Origin: Gammaproteobacteria bacterium
Lineage (GTDB): Bacteria > Pseudomonadota > Gammaproteobacteria > Pseudomonadales > Azotimanducaceae
Direction: 5' to 3'
Length of the DNA: 64,000 nucleotides
NCBI GenBank assembly: GCA_009840545.1
Contig: VXNM01000008.1
Location: forward strand, 316,339 to 380,338
Shown here: positions 5,621 to 32,992 of the stretch, piece by piece
Position numbering within the stretch: the stretch's first letter is position 1
Layout: each line of letters begins with the position of its first letter
Program-made: the position numbers and the translations under genes
The notes under the pieces: generated by a model
Told to the model about the DNA's origin: nothing
Databases searched by the model: none
What the model saw: the letters and a program-made list of their open reading frames with translations, nothing else

Positions 5621-6754
5621 GTGCTGAATCGACATCTGCTCAATGTATCTGGCGGCTCTCGTCATCTTCAAACACCAGCGCTAGTTGTTGATCTAGAAAA
5701 GCTGCGGACAAACCTAGATCGCATGCAAGCGCGGTGTGAACACCACACCCATGTGCTCCGACCACATACCAAGACACACAAGTGCGTTGCAATCGCGAAG
5801 CTACAAGTCGAACGGGGTGCTGTTGGCATTTGCTGTGCAAAGCTGAGCGAGGCAGAAGCAATGTCGCGTGGAGGACTAGAGAATATTCTCGTCACGTCTC
5901 CTGTTGTGACTGATGAAGGAATTAGGAGAGCAATTTCGCTGAGCCGTACGACGAAAGAGCTCATCCTCACAATCGACAACAAATCGGTTGCAAGACTAAC
6001 CGATGCGATGGCCAAATCGGCACAAACCGAACTGAACGTGATCATGGACATTGATCCTGGGATGCATCGCACGGGAATTCCATTGGGCGATGAGGGACTG
6101 AGCTTGGCTCACGCACTAAAACAAGACTGTCCGTCTCTGAGATTCCGAGGGGTACAGTTTTATTCCGGAGACCTTATGCATGTTCTGGACTACAGCGTGA
6201 GACGCAATCGCTACCTTGCGCGGTCAGAAAGGTTGTGGGCGTTTCTCAGAGAACTTCACGAAATGGGCATCGACACTGAAATCGTTACCGGAGGCGGAAC
6301 TGGAAGTTATGAGTTCGACTTCGAGTCAGACGTCATGACTGAACTTCAAGCGGGATCCTACGCATTCATGGATCGACAATATCTCGAGATTGAATCCGGT
6401 TCTGGAGGCACCCTTGAATTTGACCCCTCTCTTTTTGTCTTCACTACCGTTGTCTCGTCCAATCACTCCCACATGGCAACAACGGACGCTGGATTGAAGT
6501 CTTTCGCGACAGACGACAAAACACCTTTGATAGTTGACGGGGCTCCGAGGGAAAGCCACTACTCCTTCATGGGAGACGAGCACGGAGCTATTCACTGGGC
6601 AATAGACGATTGCAAACTCGACGTTGGCTCTCTAGTTTCTACTGTGGTTCCTCATTGTGATCCTACCATCAATTTGTACAACGAGCTTCACGTGATTCAC
6701 CGGGACAAGCTTGTCGATATTTGGCCGATAGAAGCAAGAGGTCACACCCAGTGA
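5621..6754 (+). CDS. DSD1 family PLP-dependent enzyme (D-serine dehydratase / D-threonine aldolase-like)
   Basis: This 377-residue protein has the fold-type III PLP pattern of the eukaryotic-type D-serine dehydratase / D-threonine aldolase family. The Schiff-base lysine lies in RPHTKTHK (K51), a glycine-rich phosphate-binding segment is TGGGTGS near 227-233, and the metal site at the C-terminus is PHCDPTINLY, where the His-Cys pair fits a zinc ligand set seen in DSD1 enzymes. The reaction would be dehydration or retro-aldol cleavage of a D-hydroxyamino acid; motifs alone do not separate the two. The start is GTG at 5621 with GGAAGG ten bases upstream. The next gene, on the same strand, begins 121 bases downstream and may or may not share the transcript. 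Confidence 0.9.
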   Translation: MLNRHLLNVSGGSRHLQTPALVVDLEKLRTNLDRMQARCEHHTHVLRPHTKTHKCVAIAKLQVERGAVGICCAKLSEAEAMSRGGLENILVTSPVVTDEGIRRAISLSRTTKELILTIDNKSVARLTDAMAKSAQTELNVIMDIDPGMHRTGIPLGDEGLSLAHALKQDCPSLRFRGVQFYSGDLMHVLDYSVRRNRYLARSERLWAFLRELHEMGIDTEIVTGGGTGSYEFDFESDVMTELQAGSYAFMDRQYLEIESGSGGTLEFDPSLFVFTTVVSSNHSHMATTDAGLKSFATDDKTPLIVDGAPRESHYSFMGDEHGAIHWAIDDCKLDVGSLVSTVVPHCDPTINLYNELHVIHRDKLVDIWPIEARGHTQ

Positions 6755-6875: not shown

Positions 6876-7955
6876 ATGTACGGACAATCCCAATTGCCAG
6901 TAAGAGACGACCTTCGCAAGGCGCATGAGTCGGTATGGAGGAGCATTAGTGCAACGGGTTCCTATTGGTCTGGTGTGGACCGAGTAGCTTTCGTTCAGGA
7001 AGCGCGGAGAGCTCTGACTTGTAGATTGTGTGTGTCCCGAAAGCTTGCAATCTCACCCAATGCCGTAGATGGCGACCACGATTCAGCTACATCACTCGAT
7101 CCTTTGATCGTCGATCTGGTCCATCGAATTCGAACTGATCCAGGCCGATATACGAAGTCTATCTTTGACAGATTTGTCTCCAAGTATTCGGTCGAGCAGT
7201 ACATCGAACTCATAAGCGTCGTTGCGAGTAGCGTGGTAGTCGACACGATGCACTTTAGCCTCGGGCTTGCCTTACCAGATCTCCACGAACCAGATGCGAC
7301 CAAACCTCGAGGTAACGAACCTGCGTTAGTAGAGGAAGGGGGAGCATGGGTGCCGCTTTCCCGTCAAGATCAGTCGCGTTCTGATCTGGGATTCCGGGGA
7401 GTCCCAAATATTCTGCGTTCGATGGGCGCCGTGTCTTCGGCAATTTCTCTCTTCTTCACATGTTTCAAGAATCACTACTCCATGATGGGCGTTCCCCTTG
7501 ATTTACAAGCCTCTCAGACGGAGTTTATTGCCGCGAGGGTGTCGGCACTCAACCAGTGTTTCTACTGAACGAGTTCGCATGCGTTGATGCTCCGTGTGAG
7601 TAGCCAATCTGAAGGTTTTGACGCGAACCTAAACGCAGTTACATTGGACGATGTCGACTCGGGAATTCTCCATTCGAGCCTCTTGAGGCAACTTACGGAA
7701 GCAACGATCGAGATGAGATGGGACGACGTAGCTTCACTTCGTTCGGAAGTTTCGAATGCAATCGGTAGTCAATCAACTGTAGACGCCCTGGCTGTGGCTA
7801 GTGGATTCAATGGAATCACACGAGTCGCCGACGCGACAGGGATACCTATCGATAGCTACGAAGATGATCTGGGAAGAGAAATTCGATCGTCAATTGGAAT
7901 CAATGAATTTCACTACAGTGCCAAGTCTTCACGTTACGACCCTGTGCAACCTTAA
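6876..7955 (+). CDS. AhpD-like (CMD family) selenoprotein, TGA at 7566-7568 read as Sec
   Basis: Two open stretches (6876-7565 and 7569-7955) lie in one frame, separated by a single TGA. Read through, they give a 359-residue protein with two AhpD / carboxymuconolactone-decarboxylase-like halves. The active site of the second half is CFY-TGA-TSSH. AhpD proteins use Glu, Cys, Cys, His at relative positions 0, +12, +15, +19 (M. tuberculosis E118, C130, C133, H137). Here E216, C228, codon 231 (TGA) and H235 fall at exactly those offsets, so the TGA sits where the reactive Cys belongs. Reading TGA as selenocysteine gives a CxxU thiol/selenol peroxidase or reductase. The segment after the TGA stays open for 128 codons and keeps family-like sequence. 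A nonsense mutation (TGC or TGT to TGA) is the alternative. No sel genes are in the window. Start ATG at 6876; no strong ribosome site. Confidence 0.82.
7566..7595 (+). promoter_or_regulatory. Sec codon and candidate bacterial SECIS hairpin
   Basis: Bacterial Sec insertion needs a hairpin just 3' of the UGA. By hand, bases 7569-7577 pair with 7585-7595 (ACGAGUUCG with UGAUGCUCCGU) as nine pairs including two G-U, with C7592 and U7588 bulged and a 7-base loop CAUGCGU. A competing fold pairs GCAU (7577-7580) with AUGC (7587-7590) around the loop GCGUUG, which begins with G as many bacterial SECIS loops do but sits rather close to the UGA. Folding was not computed. This element also encodes the conserved TSSH residues, so its sequence is doubly constrained. 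Confidence 0.42.
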
Positions 7956-17605: not shown

Positions 17606-20600
17606 CTATGGATTCTGTAGAATTTCGACCGAATCCCGTAATAGCCATCGAACCGCATCGGCGTAAACAAAAGAGCCATCCGATGCACTGGAAACTTCAA
17701 CACCGACAATTCCCTTCGATAAATTGAAAGTTCCAATGTCGTTCCAGCCCATCGTTCCAAGGGATGCATCGAAAGAAATTGGTTCCTCGTTGCCCTCTTG
17801 GATCACTCGAAGCTTATAGGTGCCTTGCCTGCCAAAGGGCTGAGCGCTAGCAATATTGCCGATTGTGTACATCGTGTACATGTTCTCTTGGCTCTCCGCA
17901 AATCTAGGTTCTACTGGCAGGTGATACTGGAGTCTCCATGACCCGGGAACCTCAAGATCAGCTTCAAATCTTGCCCAATTTTCCTCCTCTGTCTTAACCG
18001 CAACAACAGAGGTCCGACGATAGCGGCCATGCGCACCAGAAAAATCCGTTCGCGACCAAATCTGTGGAGCATCAGCATGAACGTCATATCTGGGGATACC
18101 TTCGTCCATGGCATGTTGGTTCTTGGACCCGGATCGAAATAGGTTGACAAAACGAAATCCTGCAGGATTTGCAGATTCGTTCTCCACATTGAAATCTCGG
18201 TCCAAGTCGTCGACTACCACTTGATAGGCGAACTCTTGAGAGCTCCCATCTGTCGGTTGAGATCGAGAGTCTCGGTCGGCAGTGTTTTGCTCAGAGATAG
18301 GTTCCGGCAATTGAACGTCCCAGGTGTATCGGTTGTGGGACAGAAAAGGCTGAATCTGAAGGTATTCGGGTCTGGTAGGTGACTCGAGAACCAAGCGGAC
18401 GCTGGAATTTGCATCAACGTACATTGACTCCGAGATAGTAGTGGGGAATAACATCCAGTATTGACCCTGACTCCAAGTTTGCTGAAGTCTTGCGGTCACG
18501 ACGCCTGGAACTAGCTCGTTGTTGCGAACCACAATATTCGTAACAAAATTAGGTGTTCCCTCGTCGTCAGTTCCTTCAATCACCTCAAACTCGTCAACAA
18601 CGAACCCAGGAAGGCCGGAATCGGTGATCCAATCCTCCAGACATTTCAACACAGGCAATTCAAGCTCCACAGCAAGATCATTGATGTCTTCAATGGAATA
18701 TGTTCCGCCAATGAATTTTGTTCGTAGCGCACTCAGAAACCTACCTGTGTCCTCCATTCCAAGTGCTCTGCTGAGCATTGTTGCAATGAATAGTCCCTTG
18801 ACGTTCAGAAGTTTCCAATCTGAATGGGGGTCACGATGAGTTCCCAATTCAACCAATGGAAGTGACAATGCCTCCCAACCGGCATGTTGTGTCTCATAGA
18901 TTTGTTCCACAAAGTATGCAAGCAGGTCGTTGTTGTAATTTGAAACGAGCAGCATATTGCGATTCTCTAATCGCTCAGTCAATCGTTGACTGTTGACGTT
19001 GAGTGCGGTGAAATCAGGCCGATGGGACCACATTAGGGGTTCGCTCGTTCCGGTGACCACAGAAGTTGTCAATAAACGAACAATCAAGTCGAGAGCAAGA
19101 GCTCCCCGTCCCGTGGGCTGGGACTGAAAGGTAGAAAAGTTACGCCACAATTGCTCTTGAAAGCTTGCCCCAAAGGAGTCGCTATCGAGGAATAACTGGA
19201 AGTAGCGCATTGTCAGTGTTGGAACATTCTCCAACTGCATGCTCAGAACACCATACCGTCTCCAAAACGACTCAAATCTAGCGGCAGGGAGTGTCCATTC
19301 CCGAAACATAAGCACTCCGGGCGACGACAGCTTGCTGTCATGCGGCCAAACACCTGCGTAGCCGCGTAGGGTGCTAGGAATTTCAACCATAGAAAATCGT
19401 CGATAGGGATAGTCCAGACCTACTTCCCTTGCCTTCTTCAACCAAGGTGAAACAAGATCCACAATTCCCGATGTGTATTGAGCGGCATAGGAGAGAGATG
19501 TAGCGTGTTGCTTGTGAAGTAACAACTCCAGTTCAATTCCTTCAAGCTGCATCGTATATCTAGCAAAGTCTGAAGCAATGAGTGCAAAATTTGGAATTGG
19601 AACGGAAGGTGCAATTCGAAAGAAAGCGAATTCCTTGTTTTCGTTCGACTTAATGAATTGCCTATCTGGTGCGGCGAACGTCCAATCCTTCGGAATGGAA
19701 ACCATAAGGTCTACCGCAAAGTAATCCTTGTATCGCGATTCCAAGTCGTTCCCGCCAAAATTCGCCCCTGCGATCGGCAACCACCGGATACTGGGCATTA
19801 GCGCAACATAAGAATTCTCGAAGATTGATGCATCTTGGCCAAGTGCGAGAACTGGGGAGCTCTCGCTACTAGCTTGTTGTCGTACGTCAAATTCCTCATC
19901 CAAGTAGGCAAAACGCATCACGGGTCTTCCCGTTGCTTGCAATGCGACTTCAAGCTGAACCCCATGGACTAGAGTCTTGTCGAGCGGAATGCGCAAGATT
20001 CCTTTCTCAAAGGTATAGTCGATGCGTTCTTCGGATTCGAGGGACAGATTAGTTATGGACAAACCCGGATTGAACGAAAACACTAACTCATTCAGCTCTT
20101 CGCCTTTCCGAGCCGAGACCGACAAGTTGAGATCGAGTTCCATGAGGTTACCTGGCTCAATTCGAACATCTCCGCGAACTGCCTCTAAATCAGCGATCGG
20201 TACAGAGTCGAGTTCTCGATGTGCCTGAATCCATGCCATCCTTTCTCGCTGCTGAGTGTCGTTCCACGCCAGCAATCCAACCACAATTGAACAACCAATA
20301 GCCAGAACTAGTAAAGAAGCGCAAACGATGGGGGTTTGTTTTATCTGGTCACGCCTTCTAAAGAAGAACACCGACAATCCAACTACACCTATAGCCAAAA
20401 AAGTGATTGATGAACGGTGAATAAGTGTCGGAATGTAGTCCGCTGCCGCCCCTAACAGTTCCGAAGGCATACTCGGAGTCAAAGGTCCAACACCACTTAA
20501 ATATCCCATGTAGTGAATAGACGTAATCTGCACAAGAATGTAGTGCGTAACCACGATTCCGATTCCAGAGCAGGCAACGATCAAACGATTCTTCAGCGTT

Positions 20601-21127
20601 GAATTTAGAAAGACCACCACAGCAGTCCAGAACAATAGAAGCGGAGCCGCATCACCGAACACATACTTGATCCCATCTTGCAGCGAAGAGACTCCCAAAG
20701 AGAGATTGGAGGCTTGCAAGATGCGCTGTGTTACAAGTAAGAAGGTCACCGACAACGCAAACAAGAAAAGCGAAACAAGGAACACGGAAATTGCTCGACC
20801 CAAAATCAATTGATGGTTTCGCAGGGCGTGCGAGTGAATCGTTTCTTCGATCTCTACCAAGCGATCTCTCGAGAGGCAGTCGCATCCCAGAAGAACGACC
20901 AAGACGCTAAACACCAGAATTGTTGGACCTGCAAGCGTCGACGTGAGGTACTTAATGTCGAACAGATGAGCGGTAACCGACAGGATTGCGCCGGGACCGT
21001 TTACATATCTCAAGAACAGATAGGTGGCTATCATCGAGCCAATCCCGATCGCTAGTGCGACCCAAGTTCTCACCGAACGCAAGAGTTGGCGAAACTCGCA
21101 AACAGCAACAGCCCAGGTCTTGCCCAC
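17606..21127 (-). CDS. Giant fusion paralogue: ABC-2-type membrane domain, M1-like pseudo-peptidase, golvesin-like domain
   Basis: A 1173-residue paralogue of the product of 12832-16275, on the opposite strand and pointing toward it. N-terminal helices (about residues 18-290) include an ABC-2-like loop CDCLSRDRLVEIEETIHSH with LRNHQLILGRAISV. The extracytoplasmic M1-like part (about 310-880) keeps RFAYLDEEFDV, SYVALMPSIRWLP, VEIPSTLRGYAGVW and WITDSGLPGF but again has no HExxH. After an extra segment near 990-1030 that is rich in Gln and Ser, the C-terminus shows the golvesin-like WRLQYHLP, MGWNDIGTFNLSKG and VYADAVRWL. The gene is followed by the secreted nuclease gene. The nearest ATPase gene in the window (4440) belongs to another operon. 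Confidence 0.8.
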   Translation of the reverse strand: MGKTWAVAVCEFRQLLRSVRTWVALAIGIGSMIATYLFLRYVNGPGAILSVTAHLFDIKYLTSTLAGPTILVFSVLVVLLGCDCLSRDRLVEIEETIHSHALRNHQLILGRAISVFLVSLFLFALSVTFLLVTQRILQASNLSLGVSSLQDGIKYVFGDAAPLLLFWTAVVVFLNSTLKNRLIVACSGIGIVVTHYILVQITSIHYMGYLSGVGPLTPSMPSELLGAAADYIPTLIHRSSITFLAIGVVGLSVFFFRRRDQIKQTPIVCASLLVLAIGCSIVVGLLAWNDTQQRERMAWIQAHRELDSVPIADLEAVRGDVRIEPGNLMELDLNLSVSARKGEELNELVFSFNPGLSITNLSLESEERIDYTFEKGILRIPLDKTLVHGVQLEVALQATGRPVMRFAYLDEEFDVRQQASSESSPVLALGQDASIFENSYVALMPSIRWLPIAGANFGGNDLESRYKDYFAVDLMVSIPKDWTFAAPDRQFIKSNENKEFAFFRIAPSVPIPNFALIASDFARYTMQLEGIELELLLHKQHATSLSYAAQYTSGIVDLVSPWLKKAREVGLDYPYRRFSMVEIPSTLRGYAGVWPHDSKLSSPGVLMFREWTLPAARFESFWRRYGVLSMQLENVPTLTMRYFQLFLDSDSFGASFQEQLWRNFSTFQSQPTGRGALALDLIVRLLTTSVVTGTSEPLMWSHRPDFTALNVNSQRLTERLENRNMLLVSNYNNDLLAYFVEQIYETQHAGWEALSLPLVELGTHRDPHSDWKLLNVKGLFIATMLSRALGMEDTGRFLSALRTKFIGGTYSIEDINDLAVELELPVLKCLEDWITDSGLPGFVVDEFEVIEGTDDEGTPNFVTNIVVRNNELVPGVVTARLQQTWSQGQYWMLFPTTISESMYVDANSSVRLVLESPTRPEYLQIQPFLSHNRYTWDVQLPEPISEQNTADRDSRSQPTDGSSQEFAYQVVVDDLDRDFNVENESANPAGFRFVNLFRSGSKNQHAMDEGIPRYDVHADAPQIWSRTDFSGAHGRYRRTSVVAVKTEEENWARFEADLEVPGSWRLQYHLPVEPRFAESQENMYTMYTIGNIASAQPFGRQGTYKLRVIQEGNEEPISFDASLGTMGWNDIGTFNLSKGIVGVEVSSASDGSFVYADAVRWLLRDSVEILQNP

Positions 21128-24910: not shown

Positions 24911-26788
24911 ATGAAGAGAAGTCATACAGCTTTGGCCATTTTCGCCACCATTGTCTTGGCGCTCGGGTCGTTCGCACTTGGCTACTTCATTCAGAGCAAT
25001 GCGAATGGCACACCTGACGGGTCGGCCACGTTCGCAAGACCATCCGAAACAGTAGATGAAGAAGCCGAACACGACCGTAGGCAGGCTCAAGACAAGCAAG
25101 AACAGTTCAGCATCAAAGAACTTAGTGATCCCGCTCGATTCAAAAGTCGAATAGCTCGAACCTTGGCATTAGTTAAGAGTGTTCAGAACTCCAATGCAAG
25201 CGAACTTAGCGGGTTCTTGAATCAGTCCAAGGCGATGCAATCGGGCGATTGGCAAAAAGAAATACAGAACGCAATCATTCAGCGACTAGCCGTGCTCGAC
25301 CCAACCAGTGCATTGGCTGAGGTGTCTGAATTCACCGACGCACGCCAGCAGTCTTTGCTTCCAATTGTTTATCGGGAATGGGCACTGACAAACTTGGAGG
25401 AAGCCATCAGTAATGCACGGAACCTCGACGAAAAATTTAGGCTAAGAGTGATTCGGAGCATTGTGCGTTCTCGAGCTGACTTGCCTCTCGACCAACGAAG
25501 AAGTATTGCACGGAGCTTTGACCAAGAGTGGGTTGCTATCCAACTGTTGAAGCAAGAATCCAATCAAGAGCCAATCAGTGATCCAAGACAGGAACTGAAC
25601 GACTTGCTTAGTCGAAGCTCAAGTACCGCAGAGTCTTGGAGCAATGAACAAAATCAATTTCTAGCTCAAATTCTGATTGTTTGGCTGTCCCAAGAAGGCA
25701 TTGACGCTTTCGAGGAAATCGAAGCATCCCTGCCCGACGCATTCCTCGGAGAAACAGCTCCAGCCTTCTCAGTCATCAACGAATTAGCCGTGAACAATCC
25801 GGAACTAGCGTTGCAGCTGTCCGTTGCCGCCGGATCAGTCGGATTTGGCGGACTTGCTTGGCTAACAGTTCGAAGGTGGGCTGAGTCCGATCCATTAGCG
25901 GCCTTTAATGCCGTTTCGTTACTTGAAGGCCGGTCGCTTAAACGTATGTTGCAGGATCAGGTGCTGGTTTCTTGGGCTGCGCAAAATCCACATGAGTTGC
26001 TTGACGCAACTCACACAATTCCACAAGAATTGCAGTCAATCGCTCAAGAAAAGGCACTGTCCGCATTGGCTGAGTCGTCACCTCAGACAGCATCCAAGCT
26101 ACTTGGCGAGATAGAGAACAAAGATGCTCGTGACCGCACAGCAAAAAACATCGCGTTCTCTTGGGCTCGACTCGATATCGATGGTGTGCTTGAATGGATC
26201 GGGAATGATGAATTAGTCTCTGACCTGCAATCTAGTTTGTACGAGTCTGTGATAACTTCAGTCGTAAGTCTTAATCCACAGCTAGCAGTTAGAAAGGCAC
26301 TCGATCTGCCGACTGATAATGAAGGCGTCGGACCCGAAGGCTCGGCGTTTCGAATCCTTGCCTCATCCGATTTGGATCTGGCAATTAGCTTATTGCCTCA
26401 AGCGAGAAATGGACCAACACGGCTAGCAGCATACGATGCGGTTATCAACAATTTGTTGGACGAGCATAGCGACTTTAGGAAAGCCATGGACTTATTTGTC
26501 GAAGTTGCCAACGAAGAGCCGATATCGGGTTTTAACTCAGCGCTCCATTCACTTGTGTGGGATACGCCGTTGCAATTGTTCGAATCGCTCGACGAGATTC
26601 CGACTGATCATCTGAAGAAACGCGTAGCTGGCGATCTGTTGGTTCATGAATCCAAGGGTTTGTTCTCGGATGATCAGTTGACCCGTTTGCGCGAAGTGAG
26701 CGGAAGGTCGCCTAGACCACCAAGGTCACCTGAGTTGGACGCGGCATTCAAAGAGTTGTCCGAAGCAGTCTTAGAGACATTCGAGTGA
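24911..26788 (+). CDS. Array paralogue A: membrane-anchored helical-repeat protein
   Basis: Unrecognised 625-residue protein. One N-terminal hydrophobic helix (about 7-27), preceded by basic residues, should anchor it with the bulk in the periplasm. A charged, low-complexity linker follows (about 30-65), then a long alpha-helical region with degenerate repeats in which Trp-Ala and Asp-Pro recur: QRLAVLDPTSALAEV, YREWALTNLEEAI, VRRWAESDPLAAFNAVS, SWAAQNPHELLDA, SWARLDIDGVLEWI. This style recalls solenoid scaffold proteins. It has the same length as A' (29111-30988) and is clearly its closest relative in the window; it is more distantly related to B and B'. No catalytic motif seen. It opens the A-B-A'-B' array. 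Confidence 0.85.
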   Translation: MKRSHTALAIFATIVLALGSFALGYFIQSNANGTPDGSATFARPSETVDEEAEHDRRQAQDKQEQFSIKELSDPARFKSRIARTLALVKSVQNSNASELSGFLNQSKAMQSGDWQKEIQNAIIQRLAVLDPTSALAEVSEFTDARQQSLLPIVYREWALTNLEEAISNARNLDEKFRLRVIRSIVRSRADLPLDQRRSIARSFDQEWVAIQLLKQESNQEPISDPRQELNDLLSRSSSTAESWSNEQNQFLAQILIVWLSQEGIDAFEEIEASLPDAFLGETAPAFSVINELAVNNPELALQLSVAAGSVGFGGLAWLTVRRWAESDPLAAFNAVSLLEGRSLKRMLQDQVLVSWAAQNPHELLDATHTIPQELQSIAQEKALSALAESSPQTASKLLGEIENKDARDRTAKNIAFSWARLDIDGVLEWIGNDELVSDLQSSLYESVITSVVSLNPQLAVRKALDLPTDNEGVGPEGSAFRILASSDLDLAISLLPQARNGPTRLAAYDAVINNLLDEHSDFRKAMDLFVEVANEEPISGFNSALHSLVWDTPLQLFESLDEIPTDHLKKRVAGDLLVHESKGLFSDDQLTRLREVSGRSPRPPRSPELDAAFKELSEAVLETFE

Positions 26789-26904
26789 TGCGCGAGAGAC
26801 AAAGAGTCAAGCCGACGACTACAAGATTGGAGAGGAGTCCCGGCAAGTTCTCACGTGTATCAATTCGTCGTAGTACTGGTTGAATTCGTAGAAGTTGTAA
26901 ATCG

Positions 26905-28794
26905 ATGAAGAATTATTCTCTATTTGGCGTTCTAGGATTGTTCATAGTTGCCGGAGCGTTCGTAATGGGACTCGTTGTCGCTGGTGGCTCGGAATCATCC
27001 ACAAGTAGCCTCAGTCCTCGTGTGTCCGATTCGGACACGTCCAAAAGTGACGATTCGAGTGCAGTTCTCAGAAAGCAAGACCAAAACGCGGTTCAAAGCG
27101 TTGCTGAACTTGCAACACATGATCGTTTTCCTAGCCACTTTGAACGCTCTGTTGCCCTTTATGAGCTAGTCGCCGGTGCAGACCGACAAGAGCTGCTTAC
27201 CCATTTGAGACAGTCGAGCCAATTGGCCAAAAGCTTGAAAGACGAAGCTCAACTTGCAATTATCCAGCGTCTCGCGGTAATTGACCCGATTGCTGCATTG
27301 GACACCGTGAACGAATCCCAACCTGATCCAAGTCCTTCACTTCATTCGGTCATTTACCGAGAGTGGGCCGTATCAAATTTGGATCAGGCGATTGAACATG
27401 CACGTAGCCTCGACCCTACTGATAAGAAAACGGCAGTCGAGAGCATGTTGATGGCGCGGGAAGACTTAGATCCCCAGCAACGCAGGGAATTAGCGCGACT
27501 ACTCGACATGGAGTGGCTTGCCATCGAATTGATGGAGCAGACCTCGGACTCGCCCGCAATTCAAGACCCGAAAAGCGAATGGGCGGCATTTGTGCGAAGT
27601 AACGACGAAAGTCTTGATAATCCGAACAATGCTCAACTACGCATGATGACCCATATTGCTCACGCATGGGTGCTCAAAGAAGGTGTCGATGGGTTTGACA
27701 GTCTCATCGAGTCCCTCCCCACTCCGACCGCTAGGCAGAAGATCTCTGATTTAGTAGTTCGACAAGTCACGGACGACGATCCAAGACTAGCATTTGACTT
27801 GGCACTCCATATGAGATCGATAGGGTTCATGGGGATGCTCGATCAAGTGGTTAATGAATGGAGCGAGGACGATCCTTTGTCTGTACTCAACATAGTATCC
27901 AGTCTCGAAACCAAGTACTTAAGAGGAAAACTGCAGACTGATGTATTGCAAGCTTGGGCAAACACAGATCCCAAAACTCTGCTGAATCAAGCCAGCGAAT
28001 TGTCCGTTGAACTTCAGCCCTTTGCTCGTAGTGAAGCACTACTCTCACTTGCCTATCGGTCTCCCCAAGAAGCGGCCGAGCTCATCCATGAAATTGAAGA
28101 TCAAGCAAGCCTGGACCGAATAGCTAATGCCGTCGCAACCAACTGGTCAATGTCGGATCTCTCTAGTGCCCTTCGATGGATAGACAACGAGGAGAGCGTC
28201 GCACACAATCGAGATGAATTGAGAACAGCAGCCATAGGTGGACTGGCACGGAGCGACCCACAACAAGCCATGCAAGTAGCACTTGCTCAACCTGTCAATG
28301 ATGATGGCGTAGGACCAGAAGCAGAAGTGATTAGTTCAATAACTTTTGAAGACATGGATACTGCGGTGTCACTGCTCGCGCAAGTGAGAGATGGCAAGAC
28401 CAAACTGGAGGCCTACGGATCCGTCCTAATGCATCTCACTCCTCCGTTAAGTAACGAAACTGATCGAGCTATGGACTTATTCGTTGACTTGTCTAATGAG
28501 CAAGACATTCCGTCGCGTTCCATGATCTTTATCACTCTTGTGCACGGTGAACCTCGAGCATTGTTCGGTGCTCTTGATAGGTTTGAATCTATGGACTTCA
28601 AGAGACGAGTGGCAAGCTCATTGTTACGCACCCATGAAGGCGACGACGTCTTCACGAAGGAACAGATTTCGGTTCTTCGAGAGACAAGTCAATACGGACA
28701 AGAGAGTCGAGAAGCTCGGAGAGAGGCGGCATTTGAAAGAGTGATCGAATTGTTAGAACAAAGTCGCGATTCGGACGAGACTGAGTCCGACTAA
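26905..28794 (+). CDS. Array paralogue B: membrane-anchored helical-repeat protein
   Basis: Unrecognised 629-residue protein with an N-terminal anchor helix (about 5-25), a Ser-rich linker (about 29-55) and the same helical-repeat body as A: AIIQRLAVIDPIAALDTV, YREWAVSNLDQAIEHARSLD, AWANTDPKTLLNQASEL, NWSMSDLSSALRWI. The C-terminus YGQESREARREAAFERV is shared with B' but not with A or A'. It starts 116 bases after A on the same strand and very likely shares its transcript. Closest relative in the window is B' (31100-32992). B may partner A, but this is inference from the fixed order. Confidence 0.85.
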   Translation: MKNYSLFGVLGLFIVAGAFVMGLVVAGGSESSTSSLSPRVSDSDTSKSDDSSAVLRKQDQNAVQSVAELATHDRFPSHFERSVALYELVAGADRQELLTHLRQSSQLAKSLKDEAQLAIIQRLAVIDPIAALDTVNESQPDPSPSLHSVIYREWAVSNLDQAIEHARSLDPTDKKTAVESMLMAREDLDPQQRRELARLLDMEWLAIELMEQTSDSPAIQDPKSEWAAFVRSNDESLDNPNNAQLRMMTHIAHAWVLKEGVDGFDSLIESLPTPTARQKISDLVVRQVTDDDPRLAFDLALHMRSIGFMGMLDQVVNEWSEDDPLSVLNIVSSLETKYLRGKLQTDVLQAWANTDPKTLLNQASELSVELQPFARSEALLSLAYRSPQEAAELIHEIEDQASLDRIANAVATNWSMSDLSSALRWIDNEESVAHNRDELRTAAIGGLARSDPQQAMQVALAQPVNDDGVGPEAEVISSITFEDMDTAVSLLAQVRDGKTKLEAYGSVLMHLTPPLSNETDRAMDLFVDLSNEQDIPSRSMIFITLVHGEPRALFGALDRFESMDFKRRVASSLLRTHEGDDVFTKEQISVLRETSQYGQESREARREAAFERVIELLEQSRDSDETESD

Positions 28795-28865
28795 CTAGCC
28801 AAATCTCCCGATACCCAGATTGCACGCGTCACTCGCGTGTCGTTCTTGGTCAATGACGGTACGCC

Positions 28866-28914
28866 AATAGCCGAAGGAACAATAGGCGTCTCCACACAAC
28901 ATCCGGCTATTTTT
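28866..28914 (+). terminator. Terminator-like hairpin between the two array units
   Basis: AATAGCCG (28866-28873) pairs with CGGCTATT (28904-28911) and runs into a T-stretch (28910-28914). The loop is long (30 bases) but may hold an inner GGA/TCC pairing. It lies about 70 bases after gene B, suggesting A-B and A'-B' are separate transcripts. Confidence 0.42.
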
Positions 28915-29110
28915 GAATCGAAGTCGTCAGCCGTGACTCGAAGTTGAACCATTTAGAGCGTTCGGTGATTCGAGGTTTATTACATCCTCTTATGTCCAGT
29001 AACAGAAAATTCAAACCAATCTTAAGCTTAGATAGCTATGGTTCTCTACGTACCTTGTTTACTATTGGATATGAAGACCTAACTAGAACCTTACCTAGCA
29101 CCGAATTAAC

Positions 29111-30988
29111 ATGAGAAGAAGCCAAACGGCCTTGGGCATTTTCGCCATTATTGTCTTGGCAGGCGGATCGTTCGCATTTGGCTACTTCATCCAGAGCAAT
29201 GCGAATGGAACACAGGAAGGTACGGGCACTTTCTTACAACCATCTGAAATACTCGATGAAGCGCCGGGGCATGACCGTACGCGGGATCAAGACAAGCAAG
29301 TACGGCTCAGCATCACAGAGTTAAGTGATCCCGATCTATTTGACAGCCGAATCGCTCGAACTACCGCATTGGTTGAGAGTCTCCAGAACTCTAACGCGAA
29401 TCGGCTGTTGATGCTTTTGAGTCAGTCGAAATCCATGCAACCCAGCAGTTGGCGGAAGGAAGTGCAAAGCGCAATTATTCAGCGACTAGCCGTGCTCGAT
29501 CCTATCGTTGCTTCAAGAGAGGTGTCAGAGTTCTCTGAAAAACGGCAGCTCGACCTACTTCCCTTGGTCTATGAGGAGTGGGCACTCTCAGATTTGGACC
29601 AAGCCATCGACAATGCTCAAGATCTTGACGACGAAATGAAGCGCCGAGTAACTCACTATCTCGTACAGTCTCGTGCGGACATGTCTGCCGATCAACGTCG
29701 CGAAATTGCACGACGTCTTGGCAGAGAATGGGTCGCCATTCATTTTTTGAATAGATACTCCAGTCAGCAACCCTTCAGAGATCCAAAACAAGAACTGGAG
29801 TCATTTCTAAGCCAGAGCCCAAGTGATCTAGATTCTCTGAGCGCTGCTCAATCTGAATTGCTGGTTCAGATTATGAGCGCGTGGATTGTTCAAGACGGCA
29901 TCGGAGCACTTGAGGAGATTCAAGAAAAATTACCCAAAGGTTATCTCAAACAAAGCAGACGTATTTACGGAATTAGTCGAGAAATTGGGATGAACAATCC
30001 AGGACTAGCGCTGGAGTTCGCCGTTGCCATCGGGTCGCTAGGAATGGCAGGAACTGCTTCACAAACAGTTCAAAATTGGGCGAAATCCGACCCTGCTGCA
30101 GCTTTCAACGCTGTTTCTTCGCTTGAAGGGAGGTCGGCGCGAAGATTCTTGCACAGTCAAGTCTTACAAATTTGGGCATCCAACAGTCCCTATGAGCTGC
30201 TGGATGCGACTCGAGCAATGCCTAAGCATGCTCAATCTATCGGTCTAGAGAAAGCTCTTTCCGCGATAGCTCGGACTGCACCACAGAGCGCTGTGAAACT
30301 GCTAGACATCATCGAAGACAGTGATACTCGCGAACGAGCAATAGTTGGAATCTTGACGTCTTGGATTCAACTCGACGTTGATGGTGCGCTTGAATGGATG
30401 GAAGACGAACCGACGATATCCCGCTTTCGACACGACTTAAGCCAGTCTCTACTTTTGTCGCTTGCAACATCCCATCCTCAGCTGTCATTGAAAGCACTAC
30501 TCAGACTTCCCACGGACACACATGGTGTAGGACCAGAAGGGCATTTGTTCACTTGGCTAGCCAAATGGGATTTGGACACTGCGATTCACTCGTTGCCCCA
30601 AGCGAGAGATGGAATGACAAGAACGTATGCTTACGGTGCCGTTATCGAAAGTCTCCTAGATGACCACAGAGACTTTCGTCAGGCAATGGACCTGTTTCTT
30701 CAGCTTGCCAAGAATATGGAACTTCAAGGTCACAATCCAGCACTCCATTCTCTTGTATTCCATGCTCCAATGCAACTGTATGACTCTCTCGATGAAATTT
30801 CATCCGAAGAAGTAAAAAAGCTTGCGGCGAGACATCTACTAGTTCATGAATCTAAAGGCTTGTTCTCGGACGAGCAAATTGCTCACCTGCGCGAGGTAAG
30901 CGGCCTCTTGCCGAGAAAACCAACGTCACCTGAAGTGGAAGAAGCATTGAGAGAGCTATCCGAGGTACTCATGGAAACTAGGGATTGA
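29111..30988 (+). CDS. Array paralogue A': membrane-anchored helical-repeat protein
   Basis: Unrecognised 625-residue protein, the same length as A and collinear with it over its whole length. The anchor region is almost the same (ALGIFAIIVLAGGSFAFGYF against ALAIFATIVLALGSFALGYF) and both continue with IQSNANGT. Conservation includes the anchor, so the duplication copied a whole gene. About 50 bases upstream of the ATG also resemble the sequence before A, with shared TTACTATTG and CTAACTAGA-like blocks, so the copied unit included leader sequence. Divergence by eye is moderate (well over a third of residues differ), so the duplication is not recent. It heads the second unit of the array. Confidence 0.85.
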   Translation: MRRSQTALGIFAIIVLAGGSFAFGYFIQSNANGTQEGTGTFLQPSEILDEAPGHDRTRDQDKQVRLSITELSDPDLFDSRIARTTALVESLQNSNANRLLMLLSQSKSMQPSSWRKEVQSAIIQRLAVLDPIVASREVSEFSEKRQLDLLPLVYEEWALSDLDQAIDNAQDLDDEMKRRVTHYLVQSRADMSADQRREIARRLGREWVAIHFLNRYSSQQPFRDPKQELESFLSQSPSDLDSLSAAQSELLVQIMSAWIVQDGIGALEEIQEKLPKGYLKQSRRIYGISREIGMNNPGLALEFAVAIGSLGMAGTASQTVQNWAKSDPAAAFNAVSSLEGRSARRFLHSQVLQIWASNSPYELLDATRAMPKHAQSIGLEKALSAIARTAPQSAVKLLDIIEDSDTRERAIVGILTSWIQLDVDGALEWMEDEPTISRFRHDLSQSLLLSLATSHPQLSLKALLRLPTDTHGVGPEGHLFTWLAKWDLDTAIHSLPQARDGMTRTYAYGAVIESLLDDHRDFRQAMDLFLQLAKNMELQGHNPALHSLVFHAPMQLYDSLDEISSEEVKKLAARHLLVHESKGLFSDEQIAHLREVSGLLPRKPTSPEVEEALRELSEVLMETRD

Positions 30989-31099
30989 CACATGAGAAGT
31001 AGCGGTACAGGTCAACGACAACAAGCGTCGCATGCGTGCGCTAGAACTGCTGGCATTTCTTGGTGTTGCCGTATTGGTCAAATTTCTTGACTTGAGCCG

Positions 31100-32992
31100 A
31101 TGAAAAAATATCTGTTGTTCGGTCTTGTCGGATTGGTGGTAATTGCGAGTTCCTTCGTGCTAGGTCTCCTAGTTGCCAATGGTTCGGAGTCAGCTGGAAA
31201 TCTCGCAAGTTCTCCGTCGACTGTTTCCGCCATGGCACCAACCAATGAATCAATTGATCGACGGGAAACAACAGGAATTCGAAGGGTTCGGGGAATTGCG
31301 GAACTTGCAACCGTTGATGGGTTCTCAAGTCACTTTGACCGCAATGTTGCGATTCATAAGCTAGTTGAAGACGCGGATAGTGATGATCTACTAACATTCT
31401 GGGATCAAGCCAATAGTTTGCTAGACGAGAGCTTGGGTCAGGTCGTTCACGTTGCAATCGTCCAGCGACTTACAGTGCTTGATCCAATGATTGCTTTGGA
31501 CGCCTTTAACGAGCTTTCTTCAGATCAAGGTAACGAAGTACTAAAAGCCCTTTACCGGGAGTGGTCTCTAAAGGACCTGAACCAAGCAGTTGAACATGCT
31601 CGGAGCCTCGATCTCGAATCTAAGAATGTGGTTGTCGAAAGTATGTTGCAGGCTCGGGAAGACCTTCCTCCTCAGCAACGTAGAGAATTTGCTAGGCAGC
31701 TTAATAGTGAGTGGCTGGCAATTGAAGTGATCGAGAGGGATTCGGAAACCTTGCCAATCCAAGATCCCCAACGCGAATGGTCGGCATTCGTGCGAGAAAA
31801 CGCCGAGAGTCTCGGTGTTCCGGATGACAATCAATTGCGCACGATGGCTCATATTGCTCGCGCTTGGCTTCTTAAAGATGGTATAGGGGCATTCGAAAAA
31901 ATAACTGAGTCGCTTCCCAACCAAAGCACATTGAGAAAGATCGCACAATCGGTAGTTCAAGAAATTGCCAACAACGACCCAAGACGAGCTTTCGAATTGG
32001 CAGTTCAGGTTAGGTCGTTGGGGGTGGTCGGAACCACAAGGTGGGCAGCAGCAATATGGAGCAAGAACGATCCTTTGGCCACATTAGGGGCATTATCCGC
32101 TCTCGAATCAAAGTATTTACGAGAGAGACTCCAGGATGAACTATTGCAATCTTGGGCGAGAAACGATGCGAGAGATCTGTTGAATCATGCCGCTGGATTG
32201 CCGGAGCAATTGCAGCCCCTAGCCCGCAAGAATGCATTACTCTCGCTTGCTTATGAATCTCCGCAGGACGCAGCACAAATGATCAGTCAAATTGAAGACC
32301 GAGAAAGCCTGGACGAGGTTGCAAACTCGATTGCGATTTCGTGGTCGAGATCTGACATTTCAGGCGTCCTTGACTGGATAGAAAACGAAGCGAGCGTTGC
32401 ACACAATAAAGAAGAGCTGAGAGTATTAGCTCTTAGCGGCTTGGCGAGCATCGATCCTCAACAAGCCTTACAGGCAGCCTTGGATCAACCGCTCAATGAA
32501 ACAGGTATTGGACCCGAAGCGAGAGTCATTATGGGTATTGCATTTCGAGATTTGGATACGGCAGTTTCACTGCTTCCTCAAGTGAGAGAGGGTAAGACCA
32601 GAGTCAGTGCCTATGAAGGGACTATTCTGGCGCTCAGGTCACCAATGAACAACGACCCGGATCGGGCTGTCGACCTATTCATTCAATTGACCAAAGAAGA
32701 AGCTATTGGGCGAAGCGACTATATTACAACAAGCATGGTGATTGGATTTCCTCGAGAACTGTGTGACGCTCTCGACCGGATTGAATCCATGAATCTTAGG
32801 AGACAACTAGCAAGTCAACTGCTGACATATCACGATAACGACGGCACTTTTTCGGATGAGCAAGTTGCGGTTCTTCAAGAGATAAGGCAATACGGACAGG
32901 AAAGTCGAGAAGCTAGAAGGCAGGAAGCGTTTGATCGGGCACACGAGATTTTATTGGAATCGCAGAGTACCGATAACGACGTGACTGATTAG
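31100..32992 (+). CDS. Array paralogue B': membrane-anchored helical-repeat protein
   Basis: Unrecognised 630-residue protein, collinear with B. Anchor helix about 5-25 (LFGLVGLVVIASSFVLGLL against LFGVLGLFIVAGAFVMGLV), then linker and helical-repeat body including IVQRLTVLDPMIALDAFNEL, YREWSLKDLNQAVEHARSLD and SWARNDARDLLNHAAGL, and the B-type tail YGQESREARRQEAFDRA. It follows A' by 111 bases, nearly the same gap as between A and B (116). Last member of the array; the next gene (33192-34562) is on the opposite strand. Confidence 0.85.
   Translation: MKKYLLFGLVGLVVIASSFVLGLLVANGSESAGNLASSPSTVSAMAPTNESIDRRETTGIRRVRGIAELATVDGFSSHFDRNVAIHKLVEDADSDDLLTFWDQANSLLDESLGQVVHVAIVQRLTVLDPMIALDAFNELSSDQGNEVLKALYREWSLKDLNQAVEHARSLDLESKNVVVESMLQAREDLPPQQRREFARQLNSEWLAIEVIERDSETLPIQDPQREWSAFVRENAESLGVPDDNQLRTMAHIARAWLLKDGIGAFEKITESLPNQSTLRKIAQSVVQEIANNDPRRAFELAVQVRSLGVVGTTRWAAAIWSKNDPLATLGALSALESKYLRERLQDELLQSWARNDARDLLNHAAGLPEQLQPLARKNALLSLAYESPQDAAQMISQIEDRESLDEVANSIAISWSRSDISGVLDWIENEASVAHNKEELRVLALSGLASIDPQQALQAALDQPLNETGIGPEARVIMGIAFRDLDTAVSLLPQVREGKTRVSAYEGTILALRSPMNNDPDRAVDLFIQLTKEEAIGRSDYITTSMVIGFPRELCDALDRIESMNLRRQLASQLLTYHDNDGTFSDEQVAVLQEIRQYGQESREARRQEAFDRAHEILLESQSTDNDVTD

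What the first reader, a model, noticed from the sequence alone, without database searches (positions are those of the whole stretch)
6876..7955. AhpD-like selenoprotein hidden by an in-frame TGA at the catalytic cysteine
Seen: two halves in one frame separated by a single TGA at 7566-7568; read through they form one protein with E216, C228, residue 231 = TGA and H235. Known: AhpD uses Glu, Cys, Cys, His with offsets 12, 15 and 19, reproduced exactly here, and AhpD-like CxxU proteins have been reported among marine metagenomic selenoproteins. Inferred: TGA encodes selenocysteine. A standard gene caller would report two unrelated short genes. A two-domain AhpD protein with Sec in its second half may be little described.
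Basis: partly seen in the sequence, partly recalled or inferred. Interest (0 to 1): 0.9.

Follow-up and report, generated by a model that had tools for sequence, protein, structure and literature searches.

The report
AhpD-related selenoprotein, already-known family NF041238
This is very probably a real bacterial selenium-containing redox protein whose gene ordinary gene callers break in two because one stop codon stands for selenocysteine, but the protein family was already described, so it is a well-supported new member rather than a discovery.

Summary
In detail: one frame at 6876-7955 carries a single TGA at 7566-7568 and reads through to a 359-aa protein with E216, C228, U231, H235. The protein matches NCBIfam NF041238 "alkylhydroperoxidase-related (seleno)protein" (373 bits, cut-off 175), which a 2026 review table lists as the Sargasso Sea "hypothetical protein 1", CxxU; so the family is known. 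The genome holds selA, selB, a selD domain and tRNA-Sec. TGA sits at this position in 41 of 41 sequences examined. A 5-bp hairpin with a CGTGT loop, the loop beginning 24 nt after the TGA, is conserved, and synonymous codons are frozen just there. Selection is purifying on both sides. The N-terminal half is a diverged AhpD domain keeping CxxC. Against: over 200 genomes of the bacterial family the gene is not significantly associated with selA. New member of a known kind; enzyme activity, electron donor and actual selenium insertion are untested.

The parts
6876..7955 (+). AhpD-related selenoprotein gene, 359 codons read through plus TAA (NCBIfam NF041238)
7566..7568 (+). in-frame TGA, proposed selenocysteine codon (residue 231)
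   Evidence: purifying selection on both sides
7588..7602 (+). SECIS-like hairpin: 5-bp stem 7588-7592 / 7598-7602, apical loop CGTGT 7593-7597 with G at its second position
6888..7295 (+). N-terminal diverged AhpD-like domain (residues 5-140 as compared), invariant C49-x2-C52, without the Glu and His of the relay
7368..7925 (+). C-terminal AhpD-like domain (residues 165-350 as compared) with E216, C228, Y230, U231, H235

Best explanation
The locus encodes one selenoprotein of family NF041238. Shown by sequence: a conserved in-frame TGA at the position of the second active-site cysteine of AhpD; a conserved hairpin whose loop begins 24 nt after it; Sec machinery genes in the same genome; purifying selection on both sides of the TGA. 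Inferred: SelB with Sec-tRNA decodes the UGA at the hairpin. The C-terminal domain then works as a peroxidase or disulfide reductase of AhpD type: E216, Y230 and H235 form the proton relay that activates Sec231, which attacks a hydroperoxide; C228 resolves it as a selenenylsulfide; an external thiol, or possibly the CxxC of the N-terminal domain, reduces it. Substrate and electron donor are unknown. The confidence given is for the selenoprotein and family assignment; for peroxidase chemistry I would say about 0.65.
For: NF041238 373 bits against cut-off 175, residues 9-346. selA 523, selB 388, selD 262 bits, each over its cut-off, and tRNA-Sec 72.7 bits against 47; ARAGORN: tRNA-SeC, anticodon tca. 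TGA at the position in 41 of 41 sequences and in 7 more; a TGA in all 150 matches listed (a capped list) and all 19 (hand counts). Codon choice frozen at L239 (CTC 35, CTT 4), R240 (CGT 37, CGG 2) and S242 (AGC 36, AGT 3): 0.29-0.48 bits, against 0.90-2.44 bits at the 50 other conserved positions listed. Hairpin: 99.5% of cells paired against 24-62% when slid; one pair changed on both sides, CG to UA, in 4 of 37 distinct rows. pN/pS of window versus L001: 0.19 upstream, 0.21 downstream. The relay residues match M. tuberculosis AhpD and PA0269, including the Tyr of PA0269 (PMC3141380, passages). Solved relatives 6k40, 2pfx, 3c1l over the C-terminal half, E 1e-7 to 9e-5.
Against: Pfam PF02627 scores 19.7 bits, under its cut-off of 23, and finds nothing in the unmodified genome. 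The window RNA's own minimum-energy fold is another hairpin (-7.8 kcal/mol), though that helix shows no more covariation than shuffles. The 5-bp stem has one covarying pair: 172 of 500 shuffles reach that number of pairs and 500 of 500 the number of pair types. pN/pS is slightly higher downstream in 7 of 9 pairs. Over 200 genomes of the bacterial family, 17 of 132 with the gene had no selA at E 1e-40, six of them at least 90% complete; association not significant, p 0.07. The selD is a fusion ORF whose best-scoring model, under its cut-off, is named 'fusion_not_SelD', although the selD model is over its own. No neighbour conserved widely enough to name a donor. The only structure model is useless (pLDDT 34). 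No protein-level evidence.
Confidence: 0.95

Rival explanations
1. Pseudogene or sequencing error: a TGA nonsense change in a Cys-type AhpD gene.
For: A single TGA interrupts the frame, and the AhpD relatives fetched from outside the full-length family carry Cys at this position (58 of 58 motifs printed).
Against: The same TGA is in 41 of 41 sequences, selection is purifying on both sides, and codons are frozen at the hairpin.
Confidence: 0.01
2. Two separate genes, or a TGA stop with re-initiation at the TTG at 7584.
For: A mechanical ORF list gives two ORFs.
Against: The catalytic motif would be cut between C228 and residue 231. One family model covers both halves. In all 16 regions fetched the two halves lie next to each other in order: the alignments are 3 nt apart in 15 and 6 nt apart in one (L130), while the flanking genes change.
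Confidence: 0.02
3. UGA is decoded as another amino acid (Cys or Trp) by recoding or a suppressor instead of Sec.
For: Not excluded by sequence alone.
Against: selA, selB, a selD domain and a UCA-anticodon tRNA-Sec are in the genome, and the hairpin has the form of a bacterial SECIS.
Confidence: 0.02
4. A selenoprotein, but not a peroxidase: the CxxC and CxxU sites serve as a protein disulfide reductase or adaptor, or the invariant C49, C52, H68 and H83 of the N-terminal domain bind a metal.
For: C49, C52, H68 and H83 are invariant in the 39 of 40 aligned rows that hold the region. AhpD itself is described as an adaptor protein (PMC3141380, passages).
Against: The full relay E-C-Y-U-H is kept in the C-terminal domain. 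Nothing here tests metal binding or activity.
Confidence: 0.3

Closest known systems
NCBIfam NF041238 AhpD_rel_CFYUT / Sargasso Sea 'hypothetical protein 1' (PMC1088965; equated with NF041238 in a table of PMC13188914)
   Same: Match over the curated cut-off along nearly the whole model, CFYUT motif, CxxU; PMC1088965 says that all its new families, this one included, have SECIS-like stem-loops (passages).
   Different: Nothing that sets this one apart. The table row of PMC1088965 reads 4, 7, 0, 5 (column headings not seen), which I take to include Cys homologues; none of the full-length matches listed lacks a TGA.
AhpD-like selenoproteins of COG2128 / TIGR01926 / pfam02627 type (AhpD-like 1 and 2 in PMC2398784, passages; AhpD-like protein in PMC13188914, passages)
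   Same: CxxU in an AhpD-type active site.
   Different: TIGR01926 scores 32 bits against its cut-off of 82 here; this protein has an additional N-terminal AhpD-like domain.
AhpD of Mycobacterium tuberculosis and PA0269 of Pseudomonas aeruginosa (PMC3141380, passages)
   Same: Relay residues with the same spacing: Glu, Cys, Tyr (PA0269) or His (M. tuberculosis), Cys or Sec, His.
   Different: Cys instead of Sec.

Membership tests
NF041238 AhpD_rel_CFYUT | score over the curated cut-off (175 bits) along the model | tested here: met
   373.4 bits, residues 9-346, model 1-356 of 357
NF041238 AhpD_rel_CFYUT | CFYUT motif (named in the model) with Sec or Cys at U | tested here: met
   C-F-Y-U-T at 228-232; TGA in 41 of 41 sequences examined
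Bacterial selenoprotein | in-frame UGA at a conserved redox position | tested here: met
Bacterial selenoprotein | stem-loop soon after the UGA with a small apical loop containing G | tested here: met
   5-bp stem, loop CGTGT beginning 24 nt after the UGA; frozen codons; covariation modest; feature as worded in PMC1088965 (passages)
Bacterial selenoprotein | selA, selB, selC and selD in the genome | tested here: met
   each over its cut-off, tRNA-Sec also by ARAGORN; selD as the C-terminal part of a 725-aa fusion ORF
Bacterial selenoprotein | selenium in the protein | not testable with these tools
   needs mass spectrometry or 75Se labelling
Carboxymuconolactone decarboxylase family, PF02627 | Pfam gathering score (23 bits) | tested here: not met
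   19.7 bits, E 8.4e-4, residues 210-240
AhpD-like peroxidase | Glu, Cys, Cys/Sec, His proton relay at offsets 12, 15, 19 | tested here: met
   E216, C228, residue 231 and H235 invariant in 40 of 40 aligned rows; residues from PMC3141380 (passages)
AhpD-like peroxidase | all-helical AhpD fold | tested here: inconclusive
   sequence matches to solved AhpD-like chains, but the predicted model has pLDDT 34
AhpD-like peroxidase | peroxidase activity | not testable with these tools
   no assay possible
TIGR01926 peroxidase-related enzyme | score over cut-off (81.8 bits) | tested here: not met
   32.4 bits

The most novel reading that the evidence does not exclude
A two-site selenoenzyme in which a second, diverged AhpD domain (invariant C49-x2-C52, with H68 and H83) hands electrons to, or regulates, the CxxU site, and in which Sec is not exchanged for Cys: in this genus 9 of 18 genomes have no match at all, 7 of those 9 at least 90% complete, while 18 of 18 have selA, so the gene is lost whole, or was never gained, rather than kept with Cys.
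Probability: 0.25. Interest if true: 0.55.

Novelty: new member of a known kind. Interest (0 to 1): 0.3.

Why it matters
It adds a clearly supported member to a selenoprotein family for which the papers that I saw give sequence descriptions only. The two-domain layout and the consistent use of Sec in this bacterial group make it a candidate for asking why some bacteria keep Sec where relatives use Cys. It is also a plain example of a gene that mechanical ORF calling breaks in two.

Tried and rejected
Structure prediction with two sequences (window and L001) gave pLDDT 34 and was not used.

Direct profile comparison of the N-terminal with the C-terminal half was not significant (probability 0.6%). 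Comparison of the N-terminal half with 58 Cys-type sequences was: 95.9%, score 58.8, against a maximum of 25.2 in 60 column shuffles and 13.8 reversed. Each Cys-type sequence was taken as the first frame over 120 residues holding the motif, so some may not be the matched gene.

The window's own lowest-energy hairpin was considered as the SECIS and set aside: a 9-bp form of it pairs in 75% of cells, with no more covariation than shuffles.

An operon partner was sought in 16 fetched regions. The window's neighbours recur beside the gene only in the two closest genomes (L118, L119; tblastn E 1e-5). Five same-genus genomes (L120-L124) share a different set of neighbours with each other; a few of those families also occur near the gene in L126, and one short-chain-dehydrogenase-like ORF cluster occurs in L125, L127 and L132 (that name is my reading of the sequence). 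I took none of these as a partner.

Association of the gene with selA over 200 genomes: 115 with both, 17 gene only, 52 selA only, 16 neither, Fisher p 0.07 (from lists copied by hand; the totals 171, 132 and 167 agree). It does not discriminate. Eleven of the 17 are under 90% complete, six are not.

Other phyla were not searched with the family model. A few weaker matches also hold a stop (TGA in G318, G594, G652; TAA or TAG in others); they were not examined. The one genome-contig scan used the single window protein, which finds close relatives only; it found one, L001.

Full report
What is there. At 6876-7955 (+) one frame of 359 codons is interrupted by a single TGA at 7566-7568. An ORF list splits it into 230 and 123 residues. 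Read through, the protein has E216, C228, U231 and H235, the AhpD spacing 12, 15, 19, with Y230 where PA0269 of Pseudomonas aeruginosa has Tyr50 and M. tuberculosis AhpD has His132 (PMC3141380, passages).

Family. The joined protein matches NCBIfam NF041238, AhpD_rel_CFYUT, "alkylhydroperoxidase-related (seleno)protein", with 373 bits against a cut-off of 175, over nearly the whole model. Pfam CMD stays under its cut-off (19.7 against 23), and so does TIGR01926 (32 against 82). A table in a 2026 review (PMC13188914, passages) lists NF041238 as [quoted passage not shown], CxxU. The 2005 paper (PMC1088965, passages) reports four Sec sequences of hypothetical protein 1, a CXXU motif, and stem-loops for all its new families. 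So the family is in print. A search for CFYUT, NF041238, the model name and "alkylhydroperoxidase-related seleno" found only that review. Searches for selenoprotein with AhpD-like (seven papers), with alkylhydroperoxidase and NCBIfam (none), and with AhpD, selenocysteine and peroxidase activity (one unrelated paper) listed no biochemical study of it, judged by titles and abstract starts. The library lacks most subscription journals.

Machinery. The window's genome (3.39 Mb, 14 contigs, 96.5% complete) has tRNA-Sec at C3:398849-398938 (72.7 bits against 47), confirmed by ARAGORN with anticodon TCA; selA at C2:191076-192419 (523 bits); selB beside it at C2:192431-194266 (388 bits); and selD at C3:402560-403456 (262 bits against 125). 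The selD is the C-terminal part of a 725-aa ORF with an N-terminal oxidoreductase. The best-scoring NCBIfam model of that ORF is TIGR04369 "fusion_not_SelD", at 437 bits under its cut-off of 700, while the selD model is over its own; I count it as selD with that reservation.

Relatives. In the genus 9 of 18 have the gene and 18 of 18 have selA. In 390 genomes of the order 17 have it, four of them in other families, and the 19 listed matches all hold one TGA. Samples of the class (369 genomes) and of the phylum (398) show it over the cut-off only in the window's genome. There 84 and 155 genomes have matches at E 0.001, among them shorter AhpD relatives without a stop; in the 58 loci fetched the motif found has Cys at the position in 58 of 58. 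The TGA was placed exactly in 41 of 41 sequences and in seven further ones. The nearest relative found, L001, from a Gammaproteobacteria MAG, is 77% identical; in the tree the window's protein groups with it and with L054 of the same genus (100/99).

The RNA element. In 39 sequences aligned without gaps the consensus fold is a 5-bp hairpin, in the window 7588-7592 with 7598-7602, loop CGTGT, the stem beginning 19 nt and the loop 24 nt after the TGA. 99.5% of cells pair, against 24-62% when one arm is slid; one pair changes on both sides (CG to UA in 4 of 37 distinct rows; in L031 the changed codons CTT and GTA still encode Leu and Val), and two pairs never vary. The strongest sign is codon use: at L239, R240 and S242 the entropies are 0.48, 0.29 and 0.39 bits, while the other 50 conserved positions listed lie between 0.90 and 2.44. 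Covariation alone is modest: 172 of 500 shuffles reach the number of pairs with double changes, and 500 of 500 the number of pair types, though none reaches the observed percentage paired or covariation score. The window's own lowest-energy fold is a different hairpin, which the family does not support.

Selection. pN/pS is 0.19 upstream and 0.21 downstream of the TGA for window against L001, and 0.31 and 0.34 against L054; seven further pairs lie between 0.11 and 0.20 upstream and between 0.03 and 0.33 downstream. In 7 of the 9 pairs the downstream value is the higher, by a little. Upstream synonymous sites are saturated in the two window pairs, so these are ratios of raw proportions. Amino-acid identity to the window is similar on both sides, often slightly lower downstream in distant rows.

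Two domains. The N-terminal half aligns with Cys-type AhpD relatives by profile (score 58.8; best of 60 column shuffles 25.2), with C49-x2-C52 on their CxxC; the Glu and His of the relay are missing. C49, C52, H68 and H83 are invariant in the 39 of 40 rows that hold this region. Direct comparison of the two halves is not significant.

Function. The C-terminal domain keeps the whole AhpD proton relay, so the likeliest chemistry is Sec231 attacking a hydroperoxide, resolved by C228. This is inference from homology. Donor and substrate are open: the window's neighbours are kept only in the two closest genomes, five other genomes of the genus share a different neighbourhood, and nothing recurs beside the gene across the set.

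Results against. The gene and selA are not significantly associated over 200 genomes (115 both, 17 gene only, 52 selA only, 16 neither; p 0.07); of the 17, six are at least 90% complete. The structure model failed.

Verdict. The finding is real and correctly read; it is a new member of a known selenoprotein family. The open and more interesting part is the role of the second domain and the consistent use of Sec in this bacterial group.

Noticed in passing
window 24911-32992: Four consecutive ORFs of 625-630 aa, an apparent duplication of a two-gene unit (first and third 55% identical, second and fourth 50%; otherwise about 32-37%). None of the four has a Pfam match at E 1e-6; only the first was scanned against NCBIfam at 1e-6, with no match, and against Pfam at E 1, with three weak matches under their cut-offs.
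   Followed up: partly
L019:1402-3579 (-), genome contig C3: selD is fused to an N-terminal pyridine nucleotide-disulfide oxidoreductase (725 aa; TIGR03169 and selD models over their cut-offs, TIGR04369 'fusion_not_SelD' under its own), like the Ndh-SelD fusions mentioned in PMC2398784 (passage).
   Followed up: partly
window 5621-6754: Gene just upstream: alanine racemase N-terminal plus D-serine dehydratase-like domains, related to 3-hydroxy-D-aspartate aldolase BhcC but under that cut-off; beside the selenoprotein gene it was found again only in L118.
   Followed up: partly
window 17606-21127 (-): 1173-aa ORF with no Pfam match over cut-off (weak Golvesin_C near its C-terminus, E 2.5e-4).
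   Followed up: no
genomes G016, G087, G104, G177, G186, G187: At least 90% complete genomes with the TGA-containing gene but no selA match at E 1e-40: missing contigs, divergent selA, or a gene kept without the machinery.
   Followed up: no
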